A stretch of 39,232 bases of DNA from Campylobacteraceae bacterium (GTDB lineage Bacteria > Campylobacterota > Campylobacteria > Campylobacterales > Campylobacteraceae). The first letter of the stretch is position 1. Each line of letters begins with the position of its first letter. This document shows, piece after piece, positions 13,417 to 26,436 of this stretch. The translations under genes and the position numbers were made by a program. Below the pieces are notes generated by a model that was given only the letters and a program-made list of their open reading frames with translations, had not been told where the DNA came from and ran no database searches. The stretch covers positions 1-39,232 of the forward strand of contig JAIROK010000002.1 of assembly GCA_031257555.1 (NCBI GenBank), written 5' to 3'.

Positions 13417-14181
13417 ATGATAGATTGGGGGACTACAAAAGCAGCCATTTATAGAGCAAAGAAAGATGCTCTAAAGCCTGTATTTGAGATAGATACGGTG
13501 ACATTTGATGATTTATTAAATATAGACGAACAAAAAAGTGCTCTTTTTGAAAATACCAAAAGATTTATCGATGGCAAATCAGCCTCTCACGCACTCCTTT
13601 GGGGGTCAAGAGGGACAGGTAAATCATCTTTGGTCAAAGCTGTTTTAAATCATTTTTTTGATGATGGTTTGAGACTTATCGAGTTTTTTAAAGAGGATTT
13701 GCAAGCATTAACAGATATAAGTGATGAGATAAGGTTTTTACCTTATAAATTTATAATATTTTGTGATGATATCTCTTTTGAGGCGGGGGATTCCAGTTAT
13801 AAAGCGTTAAAAAGTGTCATTGAAGGTTCCATAGAGCTTCCACCCAAAAATGTTTTGGTTTATGCCACCTCAAACAGAAGACATTTGATTCCTGAATTTC
13901 ATACCGATAATGAAGGAACGAAAATAGCGCATGGAGAGATTCATTACTCGGATAATGTTGAGGAGAAGATTTCTCTTTCGGATAGATTTGGGCTTTGGCT
14001 CTCATTTTATCAAGGTACTTTTGATGAGTATTTGAAGATAATAGACAAACTCTTCTCATCTTTTAGTGATGAAAAGAGAGCTTTAGTGCATGAAGAAGCT
14101 AAACGCTTTGCCTCTCTTAGGGCTTCAAGGAGCGGACGAACTGCAAAGCAATTTTATGCCCTTTATCATGATAAGTTTTAA
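13417..14181 (+). CDS. DUF815 family AAA ATPase
   Basis: A 254-residue AAA-type ATPase of the DUF815 family, whose cellular role is not established. Walker A is GSRGTGKS at residues 63-70, and the Walker B-like stretch is IIFCDDISF. Sensor 1 is in YATSNRRHL. The family-typical block EEKISLSDRFGLWLSFY follows. AAGGAG precedes the ATG. It is followed eight bases later by the YmdB-type gene and shares a strand with MagIII, so the three probably form one operon. Confidence 0.88.
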   Translation: MIDWGTTKAAIYRAKKDALKPVFEIDTVTFDDLLNIDEQKSALFENTKRFIDGKSASHALLWGSRGTGKSSLVKAVLNHFFDDGLRLIEFFKEDLQALTDISDEIRFLPYKFIIFCDDISFEAGDSSYKALKSVIEGSIELPPKNVLVYATSNRRHLIPEFHTDNEGTKIAHGEIHYSDNVEEKISLSDRFGLWLSFYQGTFDEYLKIIDKLFSSFSDEKRALVHEEAKRFASLRASRSGRTAKQFYALYHDKF

Positions 14182-14189
14182 GGATATAA

Positions 14190-14996
14190 ATGAAGATAGG
14201 TTTTATAGGAGACGTGGTAGGTAAACCGGGGCGCGATATGATAAATTCTCATTTAAAAGCTTTAAGAGAAGAATTTGAAGTGGATTTTGTCATAGCAAAT
14301 ACTGAAAATGCTTCGCATGGCTTTGGTCTAAGCATTAAAAATGCAAATGAGCTTTTTGGTATGGGTATAGATGTGATGACAGGCGGCAATCACACTTGGG
14401 ACAGGAAAGAGATAGTTGAAATTTTGAATGTTTTGCCGATTTTGCGTCCGTATAATTTACCTTTAAGTGTTGCCGGTCGCGGCGCCATAACAGTTGATAT
14501 AAACGGTAGAAAACTTGGCATTATAAATCTCATGGGGCATTTCTCAATGCCCATGTGTGACAATCCGTTCATCAAAGCCAAAGAGGCTGTGGCATTTGTG
14601 AAAGAGCAGGGTGCAGAAGCAGTATTTATAGATTTTCATGCCGAATCTACAAGTGAAAAAGCAGCTTTGTTTGCCATGCTAAAAGGAGAGATTTCAGCTC
14701 TCATAGGAACCCATACGCATGTTGGAACAGATGACTCGAAGATAGATAAAGGCACATTTTTTTTAAGCGATATAGGTCTTAGCGGATGCAGAGATGGTGT
14801 GATAGGAGTAGATAAAGAAGCGCCTTTAAATAGATTTTTGACAGGACTCCCTTTTGCTTTTGAAATCCCAAAAAGCTGTAAAAAAATCTTCCAAATGGCT
14901 GTTTTTGAGATAGAGGGCAAAAACTGTGTTGATGCTTTTAAGATAAAGATTTATGATGACAAACCAAGAGAGATAACAAGAGCGCTTCATGAATAG
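14190..14996 (+). CDS. YmdB-type metallophosphoesterase (TIGR00282)
   Basis: A 268-residue calcineurin-like phosphodiesterase. Metal-binding residues match the family: Asp8 (FIGDVVGKPGRD), Glu39-Asn40 (NTENASHG), Asn67-His68 (GGNHTWD), and later histidines in DFHAE and GTHTHVGTDD. Bacillus YmdB hydrolyses cyclic nucleotides and affects RNA turnover and biofilm decisions. Whether this holds here is unknown. AAGGA precedes the ATG. The last codons overlap the MagIII start (ATGA). Confidence 0.9.
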   Translation: MKIGFIGDVVGKPGRDMINSHLKALREEFEVDFVIANTENASHGFGLSIKNANELFGMGIDVMTGGNHTWDRKEIVEILNVLPILRPYNLPLSVAGRGAITVDINGRKLGIINLMGHFSMPMCDNPFIKAKEAVAFVKEQGAEAVFIDFHAESTSEKAALFAMLKGEISALIGTHTHVGTDDSKIDKGTFFLSDIGLSGCRDGVIGVDKEAPLNRFLTGLPFAFEIPKSCKKIFQMAVFEIEGKNCVDAFKIKIYDDKPREITRALHE

Positions 14997-15651: not shown

Positions 15652-15675
15652 CTTGATTGTTTAAAAGGATTTATG

Positions 15676-16308
15676 ATGAAAAAAACAGTTATTTTATCAA
15701 TAGCTTTAATATTATCTTTTGGCGGCTGTGGTAATAAAAAAGATTCTAATACCGATATCTCTAAAAATATAACAAATCCTCCAGTTATTACACCAACTCC
15801 CGAATATAGCTGCGAAGGAGGAGATACAGTAAATGGTTTTACACTTCCTGCTTGTCCTGATCAAAAACTAAACGATTCAACTCTTCTTGGCATAGACGCA
15901 AACGATAACGGCGTAAGAGATGATGTTGAAAGATGGCTCATCATAAGATATAAAGACCACCATAAGATAGTTACGGAGATAGGGTTTCAAGCAGACAGAG
16001 CACGTCGATTTATGTTTGTAAATCCTGATAAGCCTGAAGAGGCAAGACAGCTTATCAATGGAGCGCAAAGTTGCAATAGCTATTTTGAACATTATGCAGA
16101 TTTATACAATGAACCCATCTTGATTGATCATGATATCATAACTTCTACCGCTTATAAAACAATTCAATTAAACACAGAACAAAGAATAAAAGCATATCTG
16201 GATTACGATAGAAAGCTATCGGGTGGGGTATATAAACTTCCTCACATAGACGAAAAAAAAGCTTTCTGCGACTTTGATGTTGACGCTCTTTTAAAGGAAA
16301 CAAGATGA
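15676..16308 (+). CDS. Lipoprotein with a calcium-loop-like motif, unknown function
   Basis: I do not recognise a named family. The 210-residue product has a lipoprotein signal ending FGGC (Cys18), then a Pro/Thr/Asn-rich linker. The rest is compact, with cysteines in YSCEGG, LPACPD, QSCNSY and AFCDFD. Residues 74-85 (DANDNGVRDDVE) look like an EF-hand or thrombospondin-type calcium loop. A second ATG lies one codon upstream at 15673, but the start at 15676 has better spacing from AAGGA. The stop overlaps the ATG of the giant gene (ATGA), so the lipoprotein is probably its partner or anchor. Confidence 0.8.
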   Translation: MKKTVILSIALILSFGGCGNKKDSNTDISKNITNPPVITPTPEYSCEGGDTVNGFTLPACPDQKLNDSTLLGIDANDNGVRDDVERWLIIRYKDHHKIVTEIGFQADRARRFMFVNPDKPEEARQLINGAQSCNSYFEHYADLYNEPILIDHDIITSTAYKTIQLNTEQRIKAYLDYDRKLSGGVYKLPHIDEKKAFCDFDVDALLKETR

Positions 16309-19300
16309 AAAAATTATTCTTAATTTTAACATTTTTATTTATTCCTTTTTATTTAAATGCTCAAACTATAGTAATTGATGAACGTATAAATGATATATAC
16401 TTCGCTAACGGAATAATGAATACGGAAGAAGATGCTTGGAAGTCGTCAAGTTTATTAGAAAAAGCTACTCTCAAAGACATCTACAACGGTGATATTGTCT
16501 CCATGAAGCGCGAAACTGACTTCAAACTTCTTTACAATCACACTTATGGTTTATACGCAGATAAACTCGAAGCTTTCAATCAAAAGAAAGCAGAACATAA
16601 ATATTTTTGGATAGTTATGGAGGCTTTTATATCCATAGCAGGTAAAACAACAAAAGCAAGTATATTTACAGATGCTGCAAAAGATGAGATAGCCGATATG
16701 ATAGCCCAAGAGGTATTAAATGCATTAAAAGAGGGAGTTATCACATATGGTTTAGAAATAATAGACCAGGAACAACTCAAAAATGTTATAAGCGCATTAG
16801 AAAAGAATTATTTAAAAGATAAAACAGCAGCAAGTTTGTGGAGTGCGATCAGCGCAGCAAGCGATATACTGCAAAATATGGATTTAAATAAACAGTTTGA
16901 CGCTCTTACAGCAAGTATCTCATCAGGTTATCAAGCTATCATTGTAGCTCACTCTGAAGGAAATTTCTTTGCTAATGATTTGGATGAAAAACTAAATAGA
17001 GATGGCAAATCATGGATGAAGCAATACATCAAAGCCATATCAATATCAAATCCGGCAAATAAAATTCCATTTGGAGGTTCTCATATAACTTATGACAATG
17101 ACCCGATCACGATATGGCTTGATAGAGCAGAGCCAAGCATTCCAAATCCTTTGCGCTATAGAAAGTTTTACTCACAATACAATTATAACGGAACTTTATC
17201 GGACGAGGATGTTTTGGATATTATAAAAAGTATCTATTCCATGTCTATGCCTGAAGAGTGTGCTGTTGTACTTGGATTTTACTTTGAAGAGGATATATCA
17301 TCTTCGTGTTACAACAATGCCGGCATAGCATTATTTGATATAGCAAATGCAAAATTCAATACCTTTGAGTACTATATGCAAGAACAATTTGTGTCAGATA
17401 TCGGAACCGTACACAAAAATCCTTCAAGGGAATATATAACCAATTTTTTGTCCAAAAGTATAACCGCATTTAGGACAGCGCCTTCACAATGGAAACTTAA
17501 AAAGAAAAACAATAATTGTCCGGCAAGCTGCAGCGATAAAAAAAGAGAAATAGAGCATAAATACAGCAAAGCAGTCAATGATATGATATCTGCTTCACAG
17601 CTTAAAGTTTATCCATTTTCCGAAAGTGGAAAATTATATCCGTTAGAGGGTTGGTATGCAGGCGATTTCATAGTGAGTTCAGATAATGATTATGCAAAAG
17701 CTTTTAGTATAGAAGGTGGAGTTGTTGTCATGGGCAACATAACGGAGAGTAAGGGCATTTGCTATGAGTTAAAAACTATCGAAAATGATAAACCTGCAAA
17801 GCTTTTGGGAACAATCAAAAAAGATGAAGCTCAAAAGCCAACAGAACCGACAAGCGGCTATGTGGAAGTCAGTCTTAGCTGGACAAATGCTGATATCGAT
17901 ATGGACTTGAAAGTTAGTTTTCCGGGTGTACATGATATACAAGATGAGTGCCAACTTATGGAGCATTTTTACACTTTAGACGACAGAGATGTAACTCCAG
18001 GACTTTATCCGATATATATTACTTATGAGGCAAATACGACTTTAAACACATCGGTAAAAGAGATGCAAGATATCGTAGTAACCATCAAAGTTCCGGGAGC
18101 TACGGAAGCGAGGACTGTAAACCTTAAAACTATAGATTCTTCCAGTCATATAGCAGATATAAAGGTCGAAGAGAGAAAGGTAGAGGTTGTCTTAAGAGAC
18201 AATTTTCAAAAGAGCAGCACGGTTTTGTATTATCGTCCTGTAAGCGAATATAGTGTAAGCGGAAATGCAGGTTACAGCGGAGGATATAACAGTACACTCA
18301 GTAGCAGCGGAAGCTGGACATCTACATATGTTTCGCCTCCGATTAAAGATTATATTTACTCTATCATTTGGCATATATCACAAGCATTGCTTGGACCATT
18401 GAGCGGAGCAAATATCAATGTTTATGCGCTTGAAGATTATAACTTGATTACAAATAAAGGTTCAAATCCTGTATATTCGGGTATTTCTTCATATGGTTCA
18501 TCTATATATACGGCGGGCGTTATAAATGTGCCAAGAGAGATAACGGACTCTTTAGACGACGATAAGCTTTACATTATCGAAGCAAAAGGCGGAATGGATA
18601 TAGATGTGAACGACGATAAAGTATTTGACGCAAATCCTGTTGTCAATACTGGAACGATAAGAGCCGTAACAAGCGGGAGTGCGCTTAAAAACATAGGATT
18701 TAAACTAAATATCTTAACGGAGATGGCATATCAAATCTCTAAAGAGCATTATGACAAGAACGATATTTCAAGATTTATAAATAAAAGCGACGAAGCGGTA
18801 AAGTGCCTTTTAAACAGCGATATAAACCTCGATAATGTCACAAATACTATAGACGCTTTATACTTTACGCCTTACAGCGATATGGATAAATTGTATAGAA
18901 ATTATCGCAGCGAATTTATGCCTATTATAAATAAAATCCATAATGGCGGTGATATATACAAGGACAGTTTTAAACTGTATGCTAAACCTTTGGTAGCAGG
19001 CGGATATTTTAGCATAAATGAAGATGCTCCTGTAGGAACAATTATCGGCAAGATGGAGACGGATTGTGTCAGCGAGAGTCCTGTGTATCTGTTTACTTTG
19101 AGCGGAACAGGAAGTGAAAACTTTGAAGTAGATGGCGAGGGAAATCTCAAAGTTGCCAAACCGCTTGTTTATGAAGATAGAAGGATATATCATTTTTCTG
19201 TCATAGGTACGAACGCTTACGGCGATTCTCCTGCCAAACCTGTTTATATCACTGTTACTGCTGATAATTCACCGGTGATAACAAGTACATTAACAAGTTA

Positions 19301-22016
19301 TGTTTTTGAAAATATGCCAAACGGTTCGCATATGGGGACGATAAGCGTAAACGATATGGGTTATCCTATAACGAGTATGAGGCTTGAAGGATTTGGAGCT
19401 GAATACTTTAGTATAGATAATAACGGCAGAATAACTGTAGTGCATGGTGAAAATATAACTTTAAGCGATAAAGTTTATAATTTAAGAGTTATAGCCTCAA
19501 ACACTTTTGGTGACAGCGCGTCTTCACCCGTTACATTTACTATACATGACGATATACCTGTCATAGTAAAAGATATTTCTATAACGATAAAAGATAATAT
19601 CGCAGATGGTACGGTCATAGGAAGACCCTCTTATTATCCCGGACTTTCAAATATAAAAGAGTTTAAGCTTGAAGGGTATGGTGCTGAAAACTTCAACGTT
19701 AGTGCAGACGGAACCATAAGAGTTGCGCAAAGTGCCAATATAACGATTAATAATTCCCCTTATCGTTTATACATATCTGCTGAAAATGAACAGGGTATCA
19801 GTGAGCCGAAAACAGTAACTATAAATGTCATATCCTCACAAGTTGACAACATCGTATCTCTTTCCAGCTTTAGCGCAAATATATACGATAGTGCTGGTAA
19901 TAACTTTGTTGTTGGAAAGATAGCGTACAGTTACGGATATACTCCGCCAATAGCATTTAGTCTAAGCGGTGCGGGAAGCGAAAGATTTAGTATAAATTCC
20001 AATGGCGTTATAACTTTGATAGACAATACAAATCTAAACGCGGGAGATGTATTTGACCTTGAGGCAAACGCTTCAAATGAATATTTCTCAAGTACAAAAT
20101 CTAAAGTAAAGATAACGGTCATTGAAGATATGCCGCATTTATATGATTTTAGCGTTTCAATTGTAGAAGGTTTGGAAGGAGGTACCGCTATAGGCAAAGT
20201 GGGATACTCTTATGGGATAAATCGGATAGTAGAGTTTGAAATCATAGGGAACGATGATTTTACGATAGATAATAGTGGAATTATAAAAATAAAAGAGGGA
20301 GCCGTTATAGACTATGACGTTAAAAATCTGTACACATTTACTATTAAAGGTGTCAATGCTGTCGGCAAAATGACACAAAGCAGCGCTTCTGTTAGAATCA
20401 TAGACGATGCTCCTGTGTTGACGAACACCGTGCTAAGTATAATGGAAAACTCTTATGGGGGAGAAGTCGTAGGATATGTGAAAGTAAGTTCAAATGGTAA
20501 AAGCGTTATAACGTCATTTGCTCTAAGCGGTGAAGGAGCGGAAAAATTTAACATAAACGAGCAAGGACTTATAAGGCTTGGAATCGGAGCAGAGATAGAC
20601 TACGAGACAAAAAGCGTTTATAATTTGAGGGTAGTTGCTATAAATTCTCACGATACGAGCAATGAAGCAAACGTAACCATAAACGTTGTAAATGCGCCTG
20701 ATCAAGAACCTGTACTCATTCCAACTATGCTATATATGGATGAAAACTCGCCTGCCGGTACGACAGTGGGAAATATAGGCGTGTATTCTAACGGAGCGGA
20801 CGCTATAGTTTCGTTTGTCATAGAGGGTGTTAACAGCGATTGGTTTGATATAGACGATACTGGCAAAATAACCGTAGGTGAAAATGCAGTTTTAGATTAT
20901 GAAAAGAAAAAAACTTTTAATCTGAAAGTAAAAGCTACAAATAGTTACGGTTATAGTGCGCTTACGGATTTGACGATAAATTTAAATGATTTACCCGATA
21001 CCCCTCCGACCATAATATCAACGACGCTTTATGTAGATGAAAATGTACCTAAAGGTTCTTTTGTTGGACAACTTCGAGTGTACGGAGCTGGTTCTTCTAT
21101 CACTTCCATTGAATTTACGGGAGACGGCAGTGAGAATTTTAAAGTGTATGCTAACGGTACTGTTGTGACAGTAAAAGATTTGGACTATGAGCAGAAGACA
21201 AGCTATAGTTTTATAGCAACAGCAAGTAATGAGTTTTTTACAAGCAGCGCTGCAAATGTAGATATTCGTATTAATAATTTGCCGGATAGTCCTCCTATAT
21301 TAAATGATACGAGTCTTAGCATTTATAGAGAGACTCCTGTAAATAAAATGATAGGAGTTATATCGGTAAGTTCGACTATACACTGCGGTATAACAGGATA
21401 TGTGATAGATGACAACTCAGTATTTAGCATAAGAGATAGCGGAGAAGTTTATACAAATGCTGCTATAACCGAAAAAAGCAATTATACTGTGAATGTGTAT
21501 GCCAAAAGTTCATGTGGTGATAGCAATATTGTAAAGTTGACGGTAAATACGCAAAGCAGGATTATCGGTCAATTTACTAAAAGTATTTGCGATATCATTC
21601 TCTCATCAGATGATACGAAAGTATTTATGACTGATTATAGTGGCGGCAATTTGAGCATAGTCGATGTGAGCAACCCTGCAAATCCAACGCTTATCAGTTC
21701 AATCAATGTTGGAAAGTATACTTGCGGCATAGCTCTCTCATTAGATGACACAAAAGCATTTGTGACTAATTTTTATGATGGTAATTTGAAGATAATCGAT
21801 GTGAGTGACCCTGAAAATCCAATACTTATCAGTTTAATCCATGTTGGAAATGATGTTCAAAATATCGTTCTCTCCTCCGACAATACAAAAGCATTTGTGA
21901 CTGATTATGATGATGGCAATTTAAAAATAGTCGATGTGAACAACCCCGCAAATCCAATGCTTATCAGTTCAATCAGAGTTGGAAATTATGCTTACGACAT
22001 AGCTCTCTTCCGATGA
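16305..22016 (+). CDS. Giant exported hydrolase-like/cadherin-like/propeller protein, N-terminal part of a broken gene
   Basis: 1903 residues. A Sec signal peptide covers residues 1-19 (cleavage after NA). An alpha/beta-hydrolase-like region follows, with the nucleophile elbow AHSEG (Ser217) and a possible acid in TYDNDPI. The catalytic histidine is not obvious. SLSWTNADIDMDLKVSFPG at about residue 525 recalls DUF2135-like folds. Nine cadherin-like repeats of about 95 residues (about 890-1748) have the pattern ENxPxGTxVGxLxV...SGxGSENFxVxxxGxIxVxxxAxLDYExxxxYxLxVxAxNxxG. Then a beta-propeller begins with 45-residue blades. The frame ends in blade 4 at TGA 22014-22016 because of a 2-base deletion. 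The coding sequence continues in another frame. No sorting signal or transmembrane anchor was seen. Confidence 0.85.
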   Translation: MKKLFLILTFLFIPFYLNAQTIVIDERINDIYFANGIMNTEEDAWKSSSLLEKATLKDIYNGDIVSMKRETDFKLLYNHTYGLYADKLEAFNQKKAEHKYFWIVMEAFISIAGKTTKASIFTDAAKDEIADMIAQEVLNALKEGVITYGLEIIDQEQLKNVISALEKNYLKDKTAASLWSAISAASDILQNMDLNKQFDALTASISSGYQAIIVAHSEGNFFANDLDEKLNRDGKSWMKQYIKAISISNPANKIPFGGSHITYDNDPITIWLDRAEPSIPNPLRYRKFYSQYNYNGTLSDEDVLDIIKSIYSMSMPEECAVVLGFYFEEDISSSCYNNAGIALFDIANAKFNTFEYYMQEQFVSDIGTVHKNPSREYITNFLSKSITAFRTAPSQWKLKKKNNNCPASCSDKKREIEHKYSKAVNDMISASQLKVYPFSESGKLYPLEGWYAGDFIVSSDNDYAKAFSIEGGVVVMGNITESKGICYELKTIENDKPAKLLGTIKKDEAQKPTEPTSGYVEVSLSWTNADIDMDLKVSFPGVHDIQDECQLMEHFYTLDDRDVTPGLYPIYITYEANTTLNTSVKEMQDIVVTIKVPGATEARTVNLKTIDSSSHIADIKVEERKVEVVLRDNFQKSSTVLYYRPVSEYSVSGNAGYSGGYNSTLSSSGSWTSTYVSPPIKDYIYSIIWHISQALLGPLSGANINVYALEDYNLITNKGSNPVYSGISSYGSSIYTAGVINVPREITDSLDDDKLYIIEAKGGMDIDVNDDKVFDANPVVNTGTIRAVTSGSALKNIGFKLNILTEMAYQISKEHYDKNDISRFINKSDEAVKCLLNSDINLDNVTNTIDALYFTPYSDMDKLYRNYRSEFMPIINKIHNGGDIYKDSFKLYAKPLVAGGYFSINEDAPVGTIIGKMETDCVSESPVYLFTLSGTGSENFEVDGEGNLKVAKPLVYEDRRIYHFSVIGTNAYGDSPAKPVYITVTADNSPVITSTLTSYVFENMPNGSHMGTISVNDMGYPITSMRLEGFGAEYFSIDNNGRITVVHGENITLSDKVYNLRVIASNTFGDSASSPVTFTIHDDIPVIVKDISITIKDNIADGTVIGRPSYYPGLSNIKEFKLEGYGAENFNVSADGTIRVAQSANITINNSPYRLYISAENEQGISEPKTVTINVISSQVDNIVSLSSFSANIYDSAGNNFVVGKIAYSYGYTPPIAFSLSGAGSERFSINSNGVITLIDNTNLNAGDVFDLEANASNEYFSSTKSKVKITVIEDMPHLYDFSVSIVEGLEGGTAIGKVGYSYGINRIVEFEIIGNDDFTIDNSGIIKIKEGAVIDYDVKNLYTFTIKGVNAVGKMTQSSASVRIIDDAPVLTNTVLSIMENSYGGEVVGYVKVSSNGKSVITSFALSGEGAEKFNINEQGLIRLGIGAEIDYETKSVYNLRVVAINSHDTSNEANVTINVVNAPDQEPVLIPTMLYMDENSPAGTTVGNIGVYSNGADAIVSFVIEGVNSDWFDIDDTGKITVGENAVLDYEKKKTFNLKVKATNSYGYSALTDLTINLNDLPDTPPTIISTTLYVDENVPKGSFVGQLRVYGAGSSITSIEFTGDGSENFKVYANGTVVTVKDLDYEQKTSYSFIATASNEFFTSSAANVDIRINNLPDSPPILNDTSLSIYRETPVNKMIGVISVSSTIHCGITGYVIDDNSVFSIRDSGEVYTNAAITEKSNYTVNVYAKSSCGDSNIVKLTVNTQSRIIGQFTKSICDIILSSDDTKVFMTDYSGGNLSIVDVSNPANPTLISSINVGKYTCGIALSLDDTKAFVTNFYDGNLKIIDVSDPENPILISLIHVGNDVQNIVLSSDNTKAFVTDYDDGNLKIVDVNNPANPMLISSIRVGNYAYDIALFR
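18979..21550 (+). repeat. Nine tandem cadherin-like repeats
   Basis: The repeats are about 95 codons each and diverged from each other in DNA, joined by short linkers such as LPDTPPTI or LPDSPPIL. Each has one 'SGxGSENF' turn and ends in an 'SNxFGxSxxxxVxIxV' strand. The ninth (from about 21280) differs. It has Cys in TIHCGITG and SSCGDSN, and lacks the ENxPxG and LDYE motifs. Confidence 0.8.
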
Positions 22017-22490
22017 TACAAAAGCATTTGTGACTGATTATGATGACGGCAATTTGAAAATAGTCGATGTGAACAACCCCGCAAATCCAATGCTTATCAG
22101 TTAAATCAGAGTTGGAAATTATGCTTACGACATAGCTCTCTCTTCCGATGATACAAAAGCATTTGTGACTGATTATTATAATGGCAATTTGACGATAGTC
22201 GATGTGAGCAACCCTGCAAATCCAATACTTATCAGTTCAATCAAATTCAAAGGTGGTACTCACGACGTAATTCTTTCATCAGATGATACAAAAGTGTTTG
22301 TGACTGGTTATTATGATAGCAATTTGAACATAGTCGATGTGAACAATCTTGCAAATCCAATGCTTATTGGTTCAATCAATGTCGGAAATTATATTCGCGA
22401 CATAACCCTATCCTCTGACAATACAAAAGCATTTGTAGCAACAGACGGAGGTTTAATAATAATAGACATTGAAGAATTTATCAACAATCA
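21560..22490 (+). repeat. Propeller 1: seven blades of about 45 codons
   Basis: The blades follow the consensus SSDDTKAFVTDYDDGNLKIV followed by DVSNPANPILISSINVG, on a 135-base period. This is an LVIVD/YVTN-type propeller. Counting the damaged blade 4 gives seven blades, closing with ATDGGLIIIDIEEF. Blade DNA is very similar between copies, especially blades 3 and 4. Confidence 0.8.
22002..22104 (+). pseudogene. Double lesion that splits the giant gene
   Basis: Blade 4 of the first propeller carries two defects. At 22002-22010 the sequence GCTCTCTTC lacks one CT compared with GCTCTCTCTTC at the same place one repeat later (22134-22144), which shifts the frame. In the shifted frame the repeat continues to AGT TAA at 22099-22104, where neighbouring repeats read AGT TCA, so a nonsense change is also present. 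The spacing of repeat starts (GCATTTGTGA at 21891, 22024 and 22159) is 133 and then 135 bases. Elsewhere it is 135, which confirms the 2-base loss. Confidence 0.85.
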
Positions 22491-25400
22491 GCTGCCGCCT
22501 ATCATTCAAAGCGGTTTAACATTGCAAGTCAATGAAAACTCTCTTGGCGGAACATTTGTAGGACAGTTGAATGTATATAATGCTTATACAATAAATTTAT
22601 CAGGTACAGGAAGCGAAAATTTCAAAGTTTATAATAACGGAACTATAGTTGTAGCCGAAGGGGCAAATTTGGACTATGAAAGTAAAACCGGATACGCACT
22701 AAAAGCAACAGCTGTAAATGACTATGGCAATAGCAATACAGTCAGTATTTATATAAACATAAACAATTTACTTGATATTTTGCCTGTTTTGCAAGACACT
22801 CATCTTGATATATATAAAATAACACCTGCAGATACAACTATAGGAGTTATCAAAGTAACCTCGTCCATGCATTGCAATGTGATAGAGTATATATCGGATG
22901 ACAACTCCATGTTTGGGGTAAGAGACAATGGCGATGTTTATACAAAGACCATTACGTCAAAAGGAAATTATACTATAAACGTATATGCTCTAAGCAGCTG
23001 CGGCAATAGCAATACCGTGAAATTAACAATAAGTGCTGATAACATAATGGGTTCAATAAATAGTATGCAAGCTTACAATGTCGTTCTCTCTTCTGATGAT
23101 ACAAAAGCGTTTGTGACTGATTGTTTCGGCAACAATTTGAATATAATTGATGTGAGTAACCCTGCAAATCCAATACTTATCAGTTCAATCCATGTCGGAA
23201 ATTTTCGTGGCGTAACTCTCTCTTCAGATGACACAAGGGTATTTGTGGTTGATGATGACGGCAATTTGAAAATAGTCGATGTGAACAACCCCGCAAATCC
23301 AATACTTATCAGTTCAATTTATGTTGGAGGTTATATTTACGATGTCGTTCTCTCCTCCGACAATACAAAAGCATTTGTGAATGATTATCTCGGCGGCAAT
23401 TTGACGATAGTTATTGTGAGCAACCCTGCAAATCCAATACTTATCAGTTCAATCTATGTTGGAGATACTTATGGTGTAACTCTCTCATCTGATGATACAA
23501 AAGTGTTTGTAGTTGGCAGTAGGAATTTGAAAATAGTCGATGTGAGCAACCCTGCAAATCCAATACTTATCAGTTCAATCAATGTTGGAAATTATGCTTA
23601 CGACATAGCTCTCTCCTCCGACAATACAAAAGCATTTGTGACTAATTATGATAATGGCAATTTGAAAATAGTTGATGTGAGTAACCCTGCAAATCCAATA
23701 CTTATCAGTTCAATCGAAGTTGCAGTATTATATTATGCTCACGATGTAACTCTCTCCTTCGATGATACAAAGGCATTTGTGACTAATTATGATAATGGCA
23801 ATTTGAAAATAGTTGATGTGAGCAACCCTGCAAATCCAATACTTATCAGTTCAATCAATGTTGGAAATTATGCTTACGACACAGCTCTCTCCTCCGACAA
23901 TACAAAAGCATTTGTAGCAACAGACGGAGGTTTAATAATAATAGACATTGAAGAATTTATCAACAATCAGCTGCCGCCTATCATTAAAAACGATTTAACA
24001 TTGCAAGTCAATGAAAACTCTCCTGGCGGAACATTTGTGGGACAGTTGGCTGTATATAATTTGGATAGTGTGACATCTATAGTTTTAAGCGGATATGGCG
24101 CTGACAATTTCAAGGTTTATAATAACGGAACTATAGTCGTAGCCGAAAGGGCAAATTTAAACTATGAGAGGCAATCAACATATGTTATAAAAGCAACAGC
24201 TGCAAATAGTTATGGATATAGTGCGCTTGTTGATTTGACGATAAACTTGAATGATTTACCCGATACTCCGCCTGTTGTTGCAGATTTTCAAGATTTTTCA
24301 GTCGATGAGGGTTCTCTTGGCGGGACAATCGTAGGAAAACTTATTATAAATAATGTTTTTTCCCCGATAACCTCTATAAAATTGAGCGGCAACGGAGCTG
24401 AAAAATTTAGAGTTGATAATAACGGAACTATAACCGTAGCCGAAGGGGCAAATCTCAATTATGAAATAAGTAATATTTATAAGTTATATGTAATTGCTTA
24501 CAATGAATTTGGAGCAAGTAGTATGGTATATATATCTATATTTGTTAATAATTTCCCAAATCCGTATATTTCGTATAGTTGGTTTGATATTAATGAGAAT
24601 TTACCTTCGGGAACAGTTGTAGGCAAACTAACCGTTGAAGATTACGGCAGCCCTATCGCCTCAATATATTTTGAAGGTATAGGAAGCGAAAACTTTGATA
24701 TAGCTCTTGATGGAACGATAATCGTGGCAAACAATGCTATTTTGGATTATGAAACAAAACGATACTATAATTTTAGAGTTTTTGCGGTTAATAATTATGG
24801 AAAAAGTGATGGTACGGTAATATCTATATATTTAAACAATATTCCGGATTCTCCTCCTGTTGTATCTGGAGCCATCATAAAACTTGATAATAACGCTCAA
24901 GCTGGAGATGAAGTCGGCTATTTATCAATTTATACCGATGGCAGCGGGATAGACGATATATATCTGTCCGGTGAAGGAAGCGAGAATTTTGACATGGATT
25001 TTAGCGATTGTCATACTGGTGATTATCATTGCTCTTTATATATACGCGTGTCGGAAAGCGCCAATCTTGACTACTTCAATGATGGCATATATAAAATATA
25101 TATAAGTGTGTCTAATGAGTTTGGAAACAGCAGCGCTGATATTTGGATAGTTTCAAAAAGAGGTTCCGAGGCATTGCCGCCGGAGTTTGACAATATCACT
25201 TTTGTTACTTTTGGAGGCGATATGGAAAATGGTTATCGCATAGGCAATATATATCCGGTATCAGAAAATCACTGTGAAATAACAGATTATTTTACAGATA
25301 ATGATAAATTTACTATCCGGTGGAATTGGCAAGATAGATACATTGAAATTAGCTCTAATGAATTTATGCAAGGCGGTAAAGTCTATCATCTTAACATATA

Positions 25401-26436
25401 TGCAAATAGCACTTGTGGAGTCAGCAATGGTGCAGGCATTACGGTAGATGCAATGGATAGAACTACTGCTTTTGATGCAACCGGATATGACTATGAGTAT
25501 TTATCGTTAGTAGACAATGAAACAAAACTGTTTGTCGGCGATAGCTATAATACTAATTCTACATATGTTGTGGATTTGAAAAGCGGTGAAAGTATTCGTT
25601 TAAATTTACAAATCGGCAAAGACAAAAATGTATTATCAAGTATCGCATCAAAAGACGGTAAATATCTATATGCAGTCATTTGTGAGTATAATGTAAGTTG
25701 TGTTCTAAATATTTATGATATGAGTTCCCCTTACAGTCCTGTACTTATAGGCTTGTTTAATATGGGTTACCTTGATATGTACGATTTGAAAACGATACTG
25801 TCAAAAGACGGCAGCAAACTGTTTTTGCCAAGCAATAATACTGTTTATATAATAAATGTAAACAATCCTTATTTGCCTGAGATGATTAGTAAAATAGGTT
25901 CATATAATGAGATAACGATGGTATCAATATCAAAAGATGAAAAAGTCATGTATATCATAGGGTATGATAATTCCGGTTCAATTGCTATGCAAAGATATGA
26001 TATAAGTTCTTTGTATAATCCCGTCAGACTGGCTCCGATCTCTTTTAAAAACTCATATGCGATCATCGGCATGTCTGAGGATGATAATTTAGTTTATACA
26101 TCAGGCAAATATGGGTTGGCAACTTATGATGTATCTGATGCCAATAATCTTACACTGGTTAATTTGTATAGCAGACCAGGATCTTATTATCATATGGAGT
26201 ATATGAATGTTCCAATAACTTTAAATAACAACAAGTTGCTTGTTAGCAGCAAAACAGGAAAACCATTTACGATATTTGATTTAAGTGATCCGAAAAAACC
26301 GTATGTTAGTGCTATAATGGCGATCAGCTCCCCATTTTATTTTTATAAAGGACTTATTTTAACGGCAGACGAGTCGAAGGTGTTTGCGTTAGGAGATAAT
26401 GTTCTAATGATGGATATTGAAGGTATTGGAAAGTAG
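22165..26436 (+). CDS. Downstream part of the broken giant protein: propellers and cadherin-like repeats
   Basis: The frame is open from 22105 to the TAG at 26434-26436. The first possible start, GTG at 22165, is mid-repeat, has no ribosome binding site and no signal peptide, so independent translation and export are unlikely. In order it encodes propeller 1 blades 5-7, cadherin-like repeat 10, the cysteine-pair repeat 11, propeller 2, repeats 12-15, cysteine-pair repeat 16 and a divergent propeller 3 that ends the protein. With the deleted CT restored and the TAA ignored, 16305-26436 is exactly 3378 codons including the stop. No further stops occur in 4.3 kb, so the damage is recent, or is an assembly error. 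Confidence 0.75.
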   Translation: MTDYYNGNLTIVDVSNPANPILISSIKFKGGTHDVILSSDDTKVFVTGYYDSNLNIVDVNNLANPMLIGSINVGNYIRDITLSSDNTKAFVATDGGLIIIDIEEFINNQLPPIIQSGLTLQVNENSLGGTFVGQLNVYNAYTINLSGTGSENFKVYNNGTIVVAEGANLDYESKTGYALKATAVNDYGNSNTVSIYININNLLDILPVLQDTHLDIYKITPADTTIGVIKVTSSMHCNVIEYISDDNSMFGVRDNGDVYTKTITSKGNYTINVYALSSCGNSNTVKLTISADNIMGSINSMQAYNVVLSSDDTKAFVTDCFGNNLNIIDVSNPANPILISSIHVGNFRGVTLSSDDTRVFVVDDDGNLKIVDVNNPANPILISSIYVGGYIYDVVLSSDNTKAFVNDYLGGNLTIVIVSNPANPILISSIYVGDTYGVTLSSDDTKVFVVGSRNLKIVDVSNPANPILISSINVGNYAYDIALSSDNTKAFVTNYDNGNLKIVDVSNPANPILISSIEVAVLYYAHDVTLSFDDTKAFVTNYDNGNLKIVDVSNPANPILISSINVGNYAYDTALSSDNTKAFVATDGGLIIIDIEEFINNQLPPIIKNDLTLQVNENSPGGTFVGQLAVYNLDSVTSIVLSGYGADNFKVYNNGTIVVAERANLNYERQSTYVIKATAANSYGYSALVDLTINLNDLPDTPPVVADFQDFSVDEGSLGGTIVGKLIINNVFSPITSIKLSGNGAEKFRVDNNGTITVAEGANLNYEISNIYKLYVIAYNEFGASSMVYISIFVNNFPNPYISYSWFDINENLPSGTVVGKLTVEDYGSPIASIYFEGIGSENFDIALDGTIIVANNAILDYETKRYYNFRVFAVNNYGKSDGTVISIYLNNIPDSPPVVSGAIIKLDNNAQAGDEVGYLSIYTDGSGIDDIYLSGEGSENFDMDFSDCHTGDYHCSLYIRVSESANLDYFNDGIYKIYISVSNEFGNSSADIWIVSKRGSEALPPEFDNITFVTFGGDMENGYRIGNIYPVSENHCEITDYFTDNDKFTIRWNWQDRYIEISSNEFMQGGKVYHLNIYANSTCGVSNGAGITVDAMDRTTAFDATGYDYEYLSLVDNETKLFVGDSYNTNSTYVVDLKSGESIRLNLQIGKDKNVLSSIASKDGKYLYAVICEYNVSCVLNIYDMSSPYSPVLIGLFNMGYLDMYDLKTILSKDGSKLFLPSNNTVYIINVNNPYLPEMISKIGSYNEITMVSISKDEKVMYIIGYDNSGSIAMQRYDISSLYNPVRLAPISFKNSYAIIGMSEDDNLVYTSGKYGLATYDVSDANNLTLVNLYSRPGSYYHMEYMNVPITLNNNKLLVSSKTGKPFTIFDLSDPKKPYVSAIMAISSPFYFYKGLILTADESKVFALGDNVLMMDIEGIGK
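22417..22569 (+). repeat. Long direct repeat, copy 1 (partner at 23896-24048)
   Basis: This 153-base stretch encodes the last propeller blade and the first strands of the following cadherin-like repeat. It is nearly identical to 23896-24048, 1479 bases (493 codons) downstream. Only a few substitutions were seen, for example in ATCATTCAAAGCGG versus ATCATTAAAAACGA. It marks an in-frame duplication of a cadherin plus propeller module. Confidence 0.8.
23041..23985 (+). repeat. Propeller 2: seven blades
   Basis: The same blade consensus as propeller 1, with the last blade again ATDGGLIIIDIEEF. Blades 5 and 6 (TNYDNGNLKIVDVSNPANPI) are almost identical in DNA. Some blades vary in length (SRN for blade 4, an extra VLYY before blade 6). 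All seven are in frame. Confidence 0.8.
23896..24048 (+). repeat. Long direct repeat, copy 2 (partner at 22417-22569)
   Basis: This is the second copy of the 153-base direct repeat, joining propeller 2 to cadherin-like repeat 12. Recombination between the copies would delete or duplicate 493 codons without changing the frame. Confidence 0.8.
25460..26433 (+). repeat. Propeller 3: diverged seven-bladed C-terminal propeller
   Basis: Seven blade cores can be followed: LFVGDS..YVVDLKS, YLYAVI..LNIYDMSSP, LFLPSN..IINVNNP, MYIIGY..QRYDISS, VYTSGK..TYDVSDA, LLVSSK..TIFDLSDP and VFALGD..MMDIEG. It is much more diverged than propellers 1 and 2. It forms the C terminus of the protein. Confidence 0.65.

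What the first reader, a model, noticed from the sequence alone, without database searches (positions are those of the whole stretch)
16305..26436. Giant exported protein with three seven-bladed propellers alternating with cadherin-like blocks
Manual alignment of the repeats gives 16 cadherin-like repeats (9, 2 and 5) and three propellers, each with seven blades. Directly before each propeller sits a distinct cadherin-like repeat with a Cys pair (TIHC...SSCG near 21383, SMHC...SSCG in 22860-23010, ENHC...STCG in 25260-25420). The recurring unit [cadherin-like block]-[Cys-pair repeat]-[propeller] suggests a modular surface fibre built by duplication. I know of no described protein with this layout.
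Basis: partly seen in the sequence, partly recalled or inferred. Interest (0 to 1): 0.7.

Follow-up and report, generated by a model that had tools for sequence, protein, structure and literature searches.

The report
Propeller-bearing surface fibre with lipoprotein partner
A bacterium related to termite-gut Campylobacteraceae carries a giant exported protein in which a lipase-like head is joined to a stalk of cadherin-like repeats and three seven-bladed propellers; its relatives carry one to four propellers, and the head is almost always encoded right after a small lipoprotein gene, an apparently undescribed gene pair found in many bacterial phyla.

Summary
The window encodes 16 cadherin-like repeats (9, 2, 5) and three seven-bladed LVIVD propellers, each directly preceded by a repeat with a Cys pair. 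In termite-gut relatives 19 of 19 pre-propeller repeats carry that pair and 0 of 98 other repeats do. The order [cadherin-like block]-[Cys-pair repeat]-[propeller] recurs in related genomes with one to four modules (1320 to 4174 residues). Free-living relatives keep the layout without the Cys pair. Structure prediction supports both folds.

The protein starts with a signal peptide and a lipase-like alpha/beta-hydrolase domain (AHSxG motif; Ser-Asp-His triad in most relatives, His replaced by Asn here). A lipoprotein gene of a second orphan family lies directly upstream here and at 85 of 92 hydrolase loci in many phyla. All 19 sampled Campylobacterota genomes with the hydrolase also have the lipoprotein.

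The gene here is broken by a 2-nt frameshift and a stop codon in propeller 1; assembly error is not excluded.

Best explanation: a long, multi-headed surface adhesin built on an older secreted hydrolase/lipoprotein pair. The function is inferred, not shown.

The parts
15673..16308 (+). Partner gene: small lipoprotein (211 aa, lipobox-like FGGC, EF-hand-like GIDANDNGVRDDVE motif, conserved CDFD near the C-terminus); overlaps the start of the giant gene by 4 nt
   Evidence: ORF; family conserved directly upstream of 85 of 92 hydrolase loci; no Pfam or PADLOC match and only sub-threshold signal-peptide matches in NCBIfam
16305..16364 (+). Putative Sec signal peptide (MKKLFLILTFLFIPFYLNA)
   Evidence: sequence read directly; helix 2-17 in the model
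16377..17654 (+). Lipase-like alpha/beta-hydrolase domain, aa about 25-450; Ser217 (16953-16955) in VAHSEGN, Asp266, and Asn352 where relatives have His
   Evidence: alignments A3/A4 and residue table; model with Ser217 between strand 210-216 and helix 219-232; weak fold hits to DDHD, cutinase, lipase and PLA1
17754..18944 (+). Two further non-repeat domains: a beta-sandwich with YfaP/DUF2135-like sequence (aa about 484-625) and a mixed domain (aa about 683-880), joined by a low-confidence linker (627-678)
   Evidence: weak DUF2135 matches in relatives; YfaP-family feature under a plasmid match of a stand-alone relative
18987..21272 (+). Cadherin-like repeats 1-8 (first block)
   Evidence: custom HMMs; Pfam Cadherin
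21294..21548 (+). Cys-pair repeat 1 (TIHC...SSCG)
21570..22494 (+). Propeller 1, seven blades, interrupted in blade 4
22009..22016 (+). Frameshift: CT run two bases shorter than in the neighbouring blade copy
22102..22104 (+). In-frame TAA stop in blade 4
22498..22761 (+). Cadherin-like repeat of the second block
22783..23034 (+). Cys-pair repeat 2 (SMHC...SSCG)
23035..23982 (+). Propeller 2, seven blades
23977..25152 (+). Four cadherin-like repeats of the third block; the last has two cysteines of its own (DCHTGDYHC)
25186..25449 (+). Cys-pair repeat 3 (ENHC...STCG)
25462..26436 (+). Propeller 3, divergent type, seven blades, ends the protein (no C-terminal sorting domain seen)

Best explanation
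An exported, cell-surface adhesin of a Campylobacteraceae bacterium related to termite-gut lineages, encoded in a two-gene unit with a lipoprotein. N to C: signal peptide, lipase-like alpha/beta-hydrolase domain, two linker domains, then a stalk of cadherin-like repeats that carries one or more seven-bladed propellers as binding heads. Each head is joined to the stalk through a cadherin-like repeat that, in the termite-gut group, is probably stapled by a disulfide. The stalk grew by duplication of whole [repeat block + Cys repeat + propeller] modules, so head number and reach vary between species. The hydrolase/lipoprotein pair is older and widespread; the fibre was added to it in Campylobacterota. 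In several termite-gut giants, including this one, the triad is damaged, so there the head domain probably binds its partner or an anchor rather than catalysing. Shown: architecture, conservation, gene pairing, module number variation. Inferred: surface location, adhesion, disulfide, partner contact. This copy is interrupted and may be a recent pseudogene or an assembly error.
For: Same architecture in open frames elsewhere: G004 4174 aa with 4 propellers; G013 at least 3380 aa with 3; G005 2622 aa with 2; G008 1320 aa with 1; Helicobacteraceae MAGs L106/L109 with 1; G377 (1976 and 1368 aa, complete single-contig genome) with 1 each; L158 2519 aa with 2. Bin name prefixes match termite-gut MAG sets (Gsp477, Kf353, Roe453: PMC11707648). 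Cys pair 19/19 before propellers, 0/98 elsewhere in the gut group. Within-lineage similarity of propellers 1 and 2. Fold evidence. Gene pairing at 85/92 loci and in 19/19 genomes, hypergeometric p 3e-24 if genomes were independent. Analogue with tested function: BapP of Pseudoalteromonas tunicata (signal peptide, five-bladed propeller, beta-sandwich repeats; deletion reduces biofilm; PMC12153261).
Against: No outer-membrane anchor, C-terminal sorting domain or dedicated secretion genes were identified near the gene. The cadherin DxNDN linker motif is absent in 127 of 127 repeats tested, so calcium-rigidified cadherin behaviour is doubtful. The window copy is broken. Adhesion itself is untested. 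The N-terminal fold match is weak (best Foldseek E 0.016).
Confidence: 0.55

Rival explanations
1. Antibacterial effector and immunity pair: the hydrolase is a secreted phospholipase-type toxin, the upstream lipoprotein protects the producer, and in Campylobacterota the toxin is displayed on a propeller-tipped fibre for delivery to neighbours.
For: The AHSQG motif fits the XHSQG motif of Tle3 phospholipase effectors, whose immunity protein Tli3 is an outer-membrane lipoprotein (PMC9860674). Near-universal pairing. Tandem lipoprotein copies beside one hydrolase (L174 x5, L166 x6, L198 x4) and 13 genomes with the lipoprotein but no hydrolase hit are what immunity genes often look like (general knowledge).
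Against: The hydrolase has a signal peptide, and no T6SS association was tested. Triad residues are lost in several giants, odd for a toxin. No sequence link to Tle/Tli families was found in Pfam or NCBIfam scans.
Confidence: 0.2
2. Secreted lipase or esterase with a dedicated lipoprotein chaperone or outer-membrane tether; the fibre and propellers only hold the enzyme on polymeric substrate (mucus, chitin, plant wall).
For: Stable pairing with a 4-nt overlap or short gaps; triad intact in most stand-alone members: Ser 37/43, Asp 43/43, His 40/43 over the whole alignment; lipase-like fold hits.
Against: Triad degenerate in the window, G004 and G005 giants; lipoprotein copies exceed hydrolase copies at several loci; no substrate evidence.
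Confidence: 0.2
3. A decaying pseudogene or assembly artefact without present function in this genome. (This can be true together with any of the functional readings of the intact family.)
For: Two lesions in one blade of the window copy; a second hydrolase paralogue in the same genome (contig C80) also has stops; draft assembly of 62.75% completeness.
Against: 1443 codons after the lesions stay open; orthologues at the same site next to argJ are open in G004 and G013.
Confidence: 0.25

Closest known systems
BapP biofilm adhesin, Pseudoalteromonas tunicata (PMC12153261)
   Same: Signal peptide, one beta-propeller, tandem beta-sandwich repeats including cadherin-like ones, adhesin by deletion
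   Different: Five-bladed propeller at the N-terminus only, T1SS genes adjacent, no hydrolase domain, no repeated stalk/head modules, no Cys-pair repeat reported in the passages read
Archaeal surface layer proteins with propeller and PKD domains (PDB 1l0q; Jing et al. 2002, cited in PMC2447325)
   Same: Best PDB sequence match of the propellers (E=1e-22); propeller joined to an Ig-like domain in a surface protein (paper title; details from memory)
   Different: PKD instead of cadherin-like repeats, archaeal, no hydrolase, no lipoprotein partner
LVIVD-repeat and choice-of-anchor B proteins (PF08309, TIGR04312)
   Same: Blade family
   Different: TIGR04312 below its cut-off; these models describe the propeller only
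Tle3/Tli3 type VI lipase effector and immunity pair (PMC9860674)
   Same: XHSQG hydrolase encoded next to a lipoprotein gene
   Different: Tle3 is predicted cytoplasmic and interacts with VgrG; ours has a signal peptide; no sequence relation detected
Eukaryotic protocadherins and cadherins
   Same: Repeat fold by sequence and Foldseek
   Different: Canonical calcium linker motif missing

Membership tests
Cadherin repeat (PF00028) | Score above the Pfam gathering cut-off | tested here: met
   141 and 90 bits against 28.8
Cadherin repeat (PF00028) | Interdomain calcium motif DxNDN | tested here: not met
   0 of 127 repeats; LDYE/LDRE-type motif in 60
LVIVD propeller (PF08309) | Score above cut-off, several tandem blades | tested here: met
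   92.8 bits against 20.2, six stretches
Seven-bladed propeller fold | Seven four-stranded blades with ring closure | tested here: met
   Seven blades by sequence in each; 27 of 28 strands assigned in the model of propeller 2; coordinates could not be inspected for ring closure
Alpha/beta-hydrolase (lipase-like) | Nucleophile elbow and Ser-Asp-His order | tested here: met
   For the family: Ser after a strand and before a helix, order S-D-H; best fold hits are lipase-type but weak
Alpha/beta-hydrolase (lipase-like) | Complete catalytic triad in the window protein | tested here: not met
   Asn352 in place of His
Tle/Tli effector-immunity pairs | T6SS delivery and toxicity neutralised by the partner | not tested
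   No T6SS search was made; toxicity needs the bench
Bap-like RTX adhesins | RTX repeats / T1SS C-terminal signal | tested here: not met
   No RTX family match; the protein ends in propeller 3; one weak T1SS_rpt_143 match (30.6 bits against a cut-off of 66) inside the cadherin block

The most novel reading that the evidence does not exclude
A previously undescribed, widespread two-gene system (lipoprotein plus Sec-exported hydrolase) acts as a surface-displayed toxin and immunity pair, and in Campylobacterota the toxin domain sits at the base of a giant modular fibre whose propeller heads select the target cell and multiply by module duplication.
Probability: 0.15. Interest if true: 0.85.

Novelty: new variant of a known kind. 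Interest (0 to 1): 0.55.

Why it matters
Bacterial surface proteins mixing propellers with Ig-like or cadherin-like repeats are known, but a stalk with several heads, varying in number from one to four between related species and each with its own conserved disulfide-type connector, gives a natural series for asking how multi-headed adhesins evolve. The stronger lead is the gene pair: two families without a Pfam, NCBIfam or PADLOC model, almost always adjacent, in many phyla including cultured soil bacteria, which makes the pair directly testable.

Tried and rejected
Rfam and tRNA searches found nothing in the window. PDB profile searches with the hydrolase and lipoprotein alignments gave no significant match. 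PADLOC gave none. I considered that the Cys pair is universal for the layout and rejected it: six pre-propeller repeats of five free-living relatives lack it. I considered all three propellers to be recent copies and rejected it for propeller 3. I considered phase variation by the CT run at the frameshift; the run is short (three to four units) and a stop codon follows, so I do not favour it. The idea that near-identical gene copies break the G005 assembly was only partly supported: the contig-end lipoprotein copies are 72-93% identical, not identical. A literature search for the hydrolase motif together with Cupriavidus found nothing.

Full report
What is there. The region encodes one gene split in two: ORF 16305-22016 (1903 aa) and ORF 22165-26436. 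The split has two causes inside blade 4 of propeller 1: a two-base shorter CT run near 22009-22016 and an in-frame TAA at 22102-22104; the next blade copy shows neither. I analysed the pieces separately and did not mend the gene.

Domain count. HMMs built from the window's own repeats and iterated over the window and its relatives give nine repeats, propeller, two repeats, propeller, five repeats, propeller. Each propeller has seven blades; the third is divergent and its blades are partly below the HMM threshold but readable. Pfam places the blades in LVIVD and the repeats in Cadherin. The nearest solved propeller by sequence is 1l0q, a surface layer protein.

Structure. AlphaFold2 of window 22834-26433 with 17 aligned sequences reached mean pLDDT 80.5. 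Propeller 2 is mostly near or above 90, with 27 strands assigned out of the 28 expected for seven blades. Foldseek against the PDB returns protocadherin, desmoglein and CELSR ectodomains and multi-propeller proteins such as Trm734 and LRP2. The relative orientation of domains is not reliable (pTM 0.43). The interrupted propeller 1 was not modelled.

The Cys-pair repeat. All 19 pre-propeller repeats in the termite-gut group have the pair and none of 98 other repeats do, once the three repeats preceding the divergent C-terminal propeller are counted correctly. In free-living relatives (L113, L158, L183, L184, L187) none of six pre-propeller repeats has it. So the placement is special, but the pair is a lineage feature and not a requirement of the layout. 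The first Cys lies just before strand C and the second just after strand F in the model of the third Cys repeat. In Ig-like folds these loops are at the same end, so a disulfide is plausible; this is inference.

Relatives. The same layout occurs with one to four propellers: G008 1, G090 1, L106 and L109 1, G377 1 (in each of two genes), G005 2, L158 2, G013 3, G004 4. G004 and G013 lie at the same site, next to argJ, and are open throughout the sequence held; G013 starts at a contig end. In all, 37 of 397 sampled genomes of the phylum match the Cys-repeat/propeller profile, but many of those hits are propellers alone. Record titles name Campylobacteraceae and Helicobacteraceae MAGs; the sample codes Gsp477, Kf353 and Roe453 are termites according to PMC11707648. 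The window's own genome is in the same genus as several of these, but its source was not shown, so the termite gut is inferred for it. 'Termite-gut group' here means the genus of the window plus G090, L106 and L109; for some members the host is inferred from the name pattern, and 'free-living' for the others is inferred from record titles.

Duplication. Propeller 1 pieces are 69% and 78% identical to propeller 2, against at most 62% to any other species' propeller. Propeller 3 is closest to G013_p3 (52%) and G004_p4 (48%). Thus the module arrays are partly recent and partly inherited.

The head of the protein. Residues 1-890 are not repeats. A 43-row alignment has invariant His216, Gly219, Phe222 and Asp266. 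The triad columns are Ser 37/43, Asp 43/43, His 40/43. The window has Ser217 and Asp266 but Asn352; the G004 giant has Gly at the nucleophile; the G005 giant has Ala and Asn. The model (mean pLDDT 77.6, much of the domain core above 90) puts Ser217 at a strand-to-helix turn. PDB fold hits are weak, and the lipase-type ones (DDHD, cutinase, lipase, PLA1) lead. No Pfam or NCBIfam model covers it; weak matches to DUF676, Abhydrolase_6, DUF3089 and palmitoyl thioesterase in relatives are of the same fold class.

The partner. The 211-residue lipoprotein gene 15673-16308 overlaps the giant gene by 4 nt. Members of its family lie directly upstream, on the same strand, at 85 of 92 distinct hydrolase loci, from Campylobacterota to Yonathbacteria, Nitrospina, Bdellovibrio and Ferrimonas; at least three of the seven exceptions (L032, L105, L109) start at the edge of the sequence held. 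All 19 sampled genomes of the phylum with the hydrolase carry the lipoprotein, which occurs in 32 of 397; shared ancestry of the genomes inflates the significance. A conjugative plasmid of Cupriavidus metallidurans carries a compact pair annotated as hypothetical proteins, recovered by both profiles. Tandem lipoprotein copies occur at several loci.

Interpretation. I favour a surface adhesin fibre built on an older secreted hydrolase/lipoprotein pair. BapP of P. tunicata, with a propeller and beta-sandwich repeats and a biofilm phenotype on deletion, is the best functional analogue (PMC12153261). The pair resembles Tle3/Tli3 in motif and partner type (PMC9860674), so an effector/immunity role is a live rival, weakened by the signal peptide and by triad loss in several giants. 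Neither role has been tested.

Limits. The anchor and secretion route are unknown. The window genome is a 62.75% complete draft. Literature was searched only in the held open-access library, so 'undescribed' means not found there or in the family libraries used.

Noticed in passing
window 15673-16308 and loci L174, L166, L198, L184: The upstream lipoprotein family occurs in tandem arrays (up to six copies) beside one hydrolase gene, and without a hydrolase hit in 13 sampled genomes.
   Followed up: partly
G005 contigs C2, C4, C6, C8, C24, C27 (L231-L236): Six of the eight lipoprotein copies listed for this related genome lie within the first kilobase of a contig and run towards its end, suggesting multi-copy loci that break the assembly; matching stretches are 72-93% identical.
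   Followed up: partly
G000 contig C80, 15327-16839 (L197): A second hydrolase paralogue in the window's own genome is interrupted by stops, so decay of these genes may be common here.
   Followed up: no
window 24858-25152: The last ordinary repeat of the third block has two cysteines of its own (DCHTGDYHC); the repeat at that position also has two Cys in G013 and G004.
   Followed up: partly
window 18987-19253: The first cadherin-like repeat has one cysteine, conserved in most gut relatives checked (TDCVSES-type).
   Followed up: no
L028 4477-7662 (G013); L029 128-1048 (G005): Propellers of 6 and 8 blades (one blade shortened) sit in one G013 protein, suggesting blade exchange between propellers or misassembly; the second G005 propeller has five blades.
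   Followed up: partly
window 13417-14181 and 14190-14996: Neighbouring DUF815 ATPase and YmdB-like phosphoesterase genes; ordinary genes (secDF, leuS, mfd, argJ, ppk) make up much of the rest of the window.
   Followed up: no
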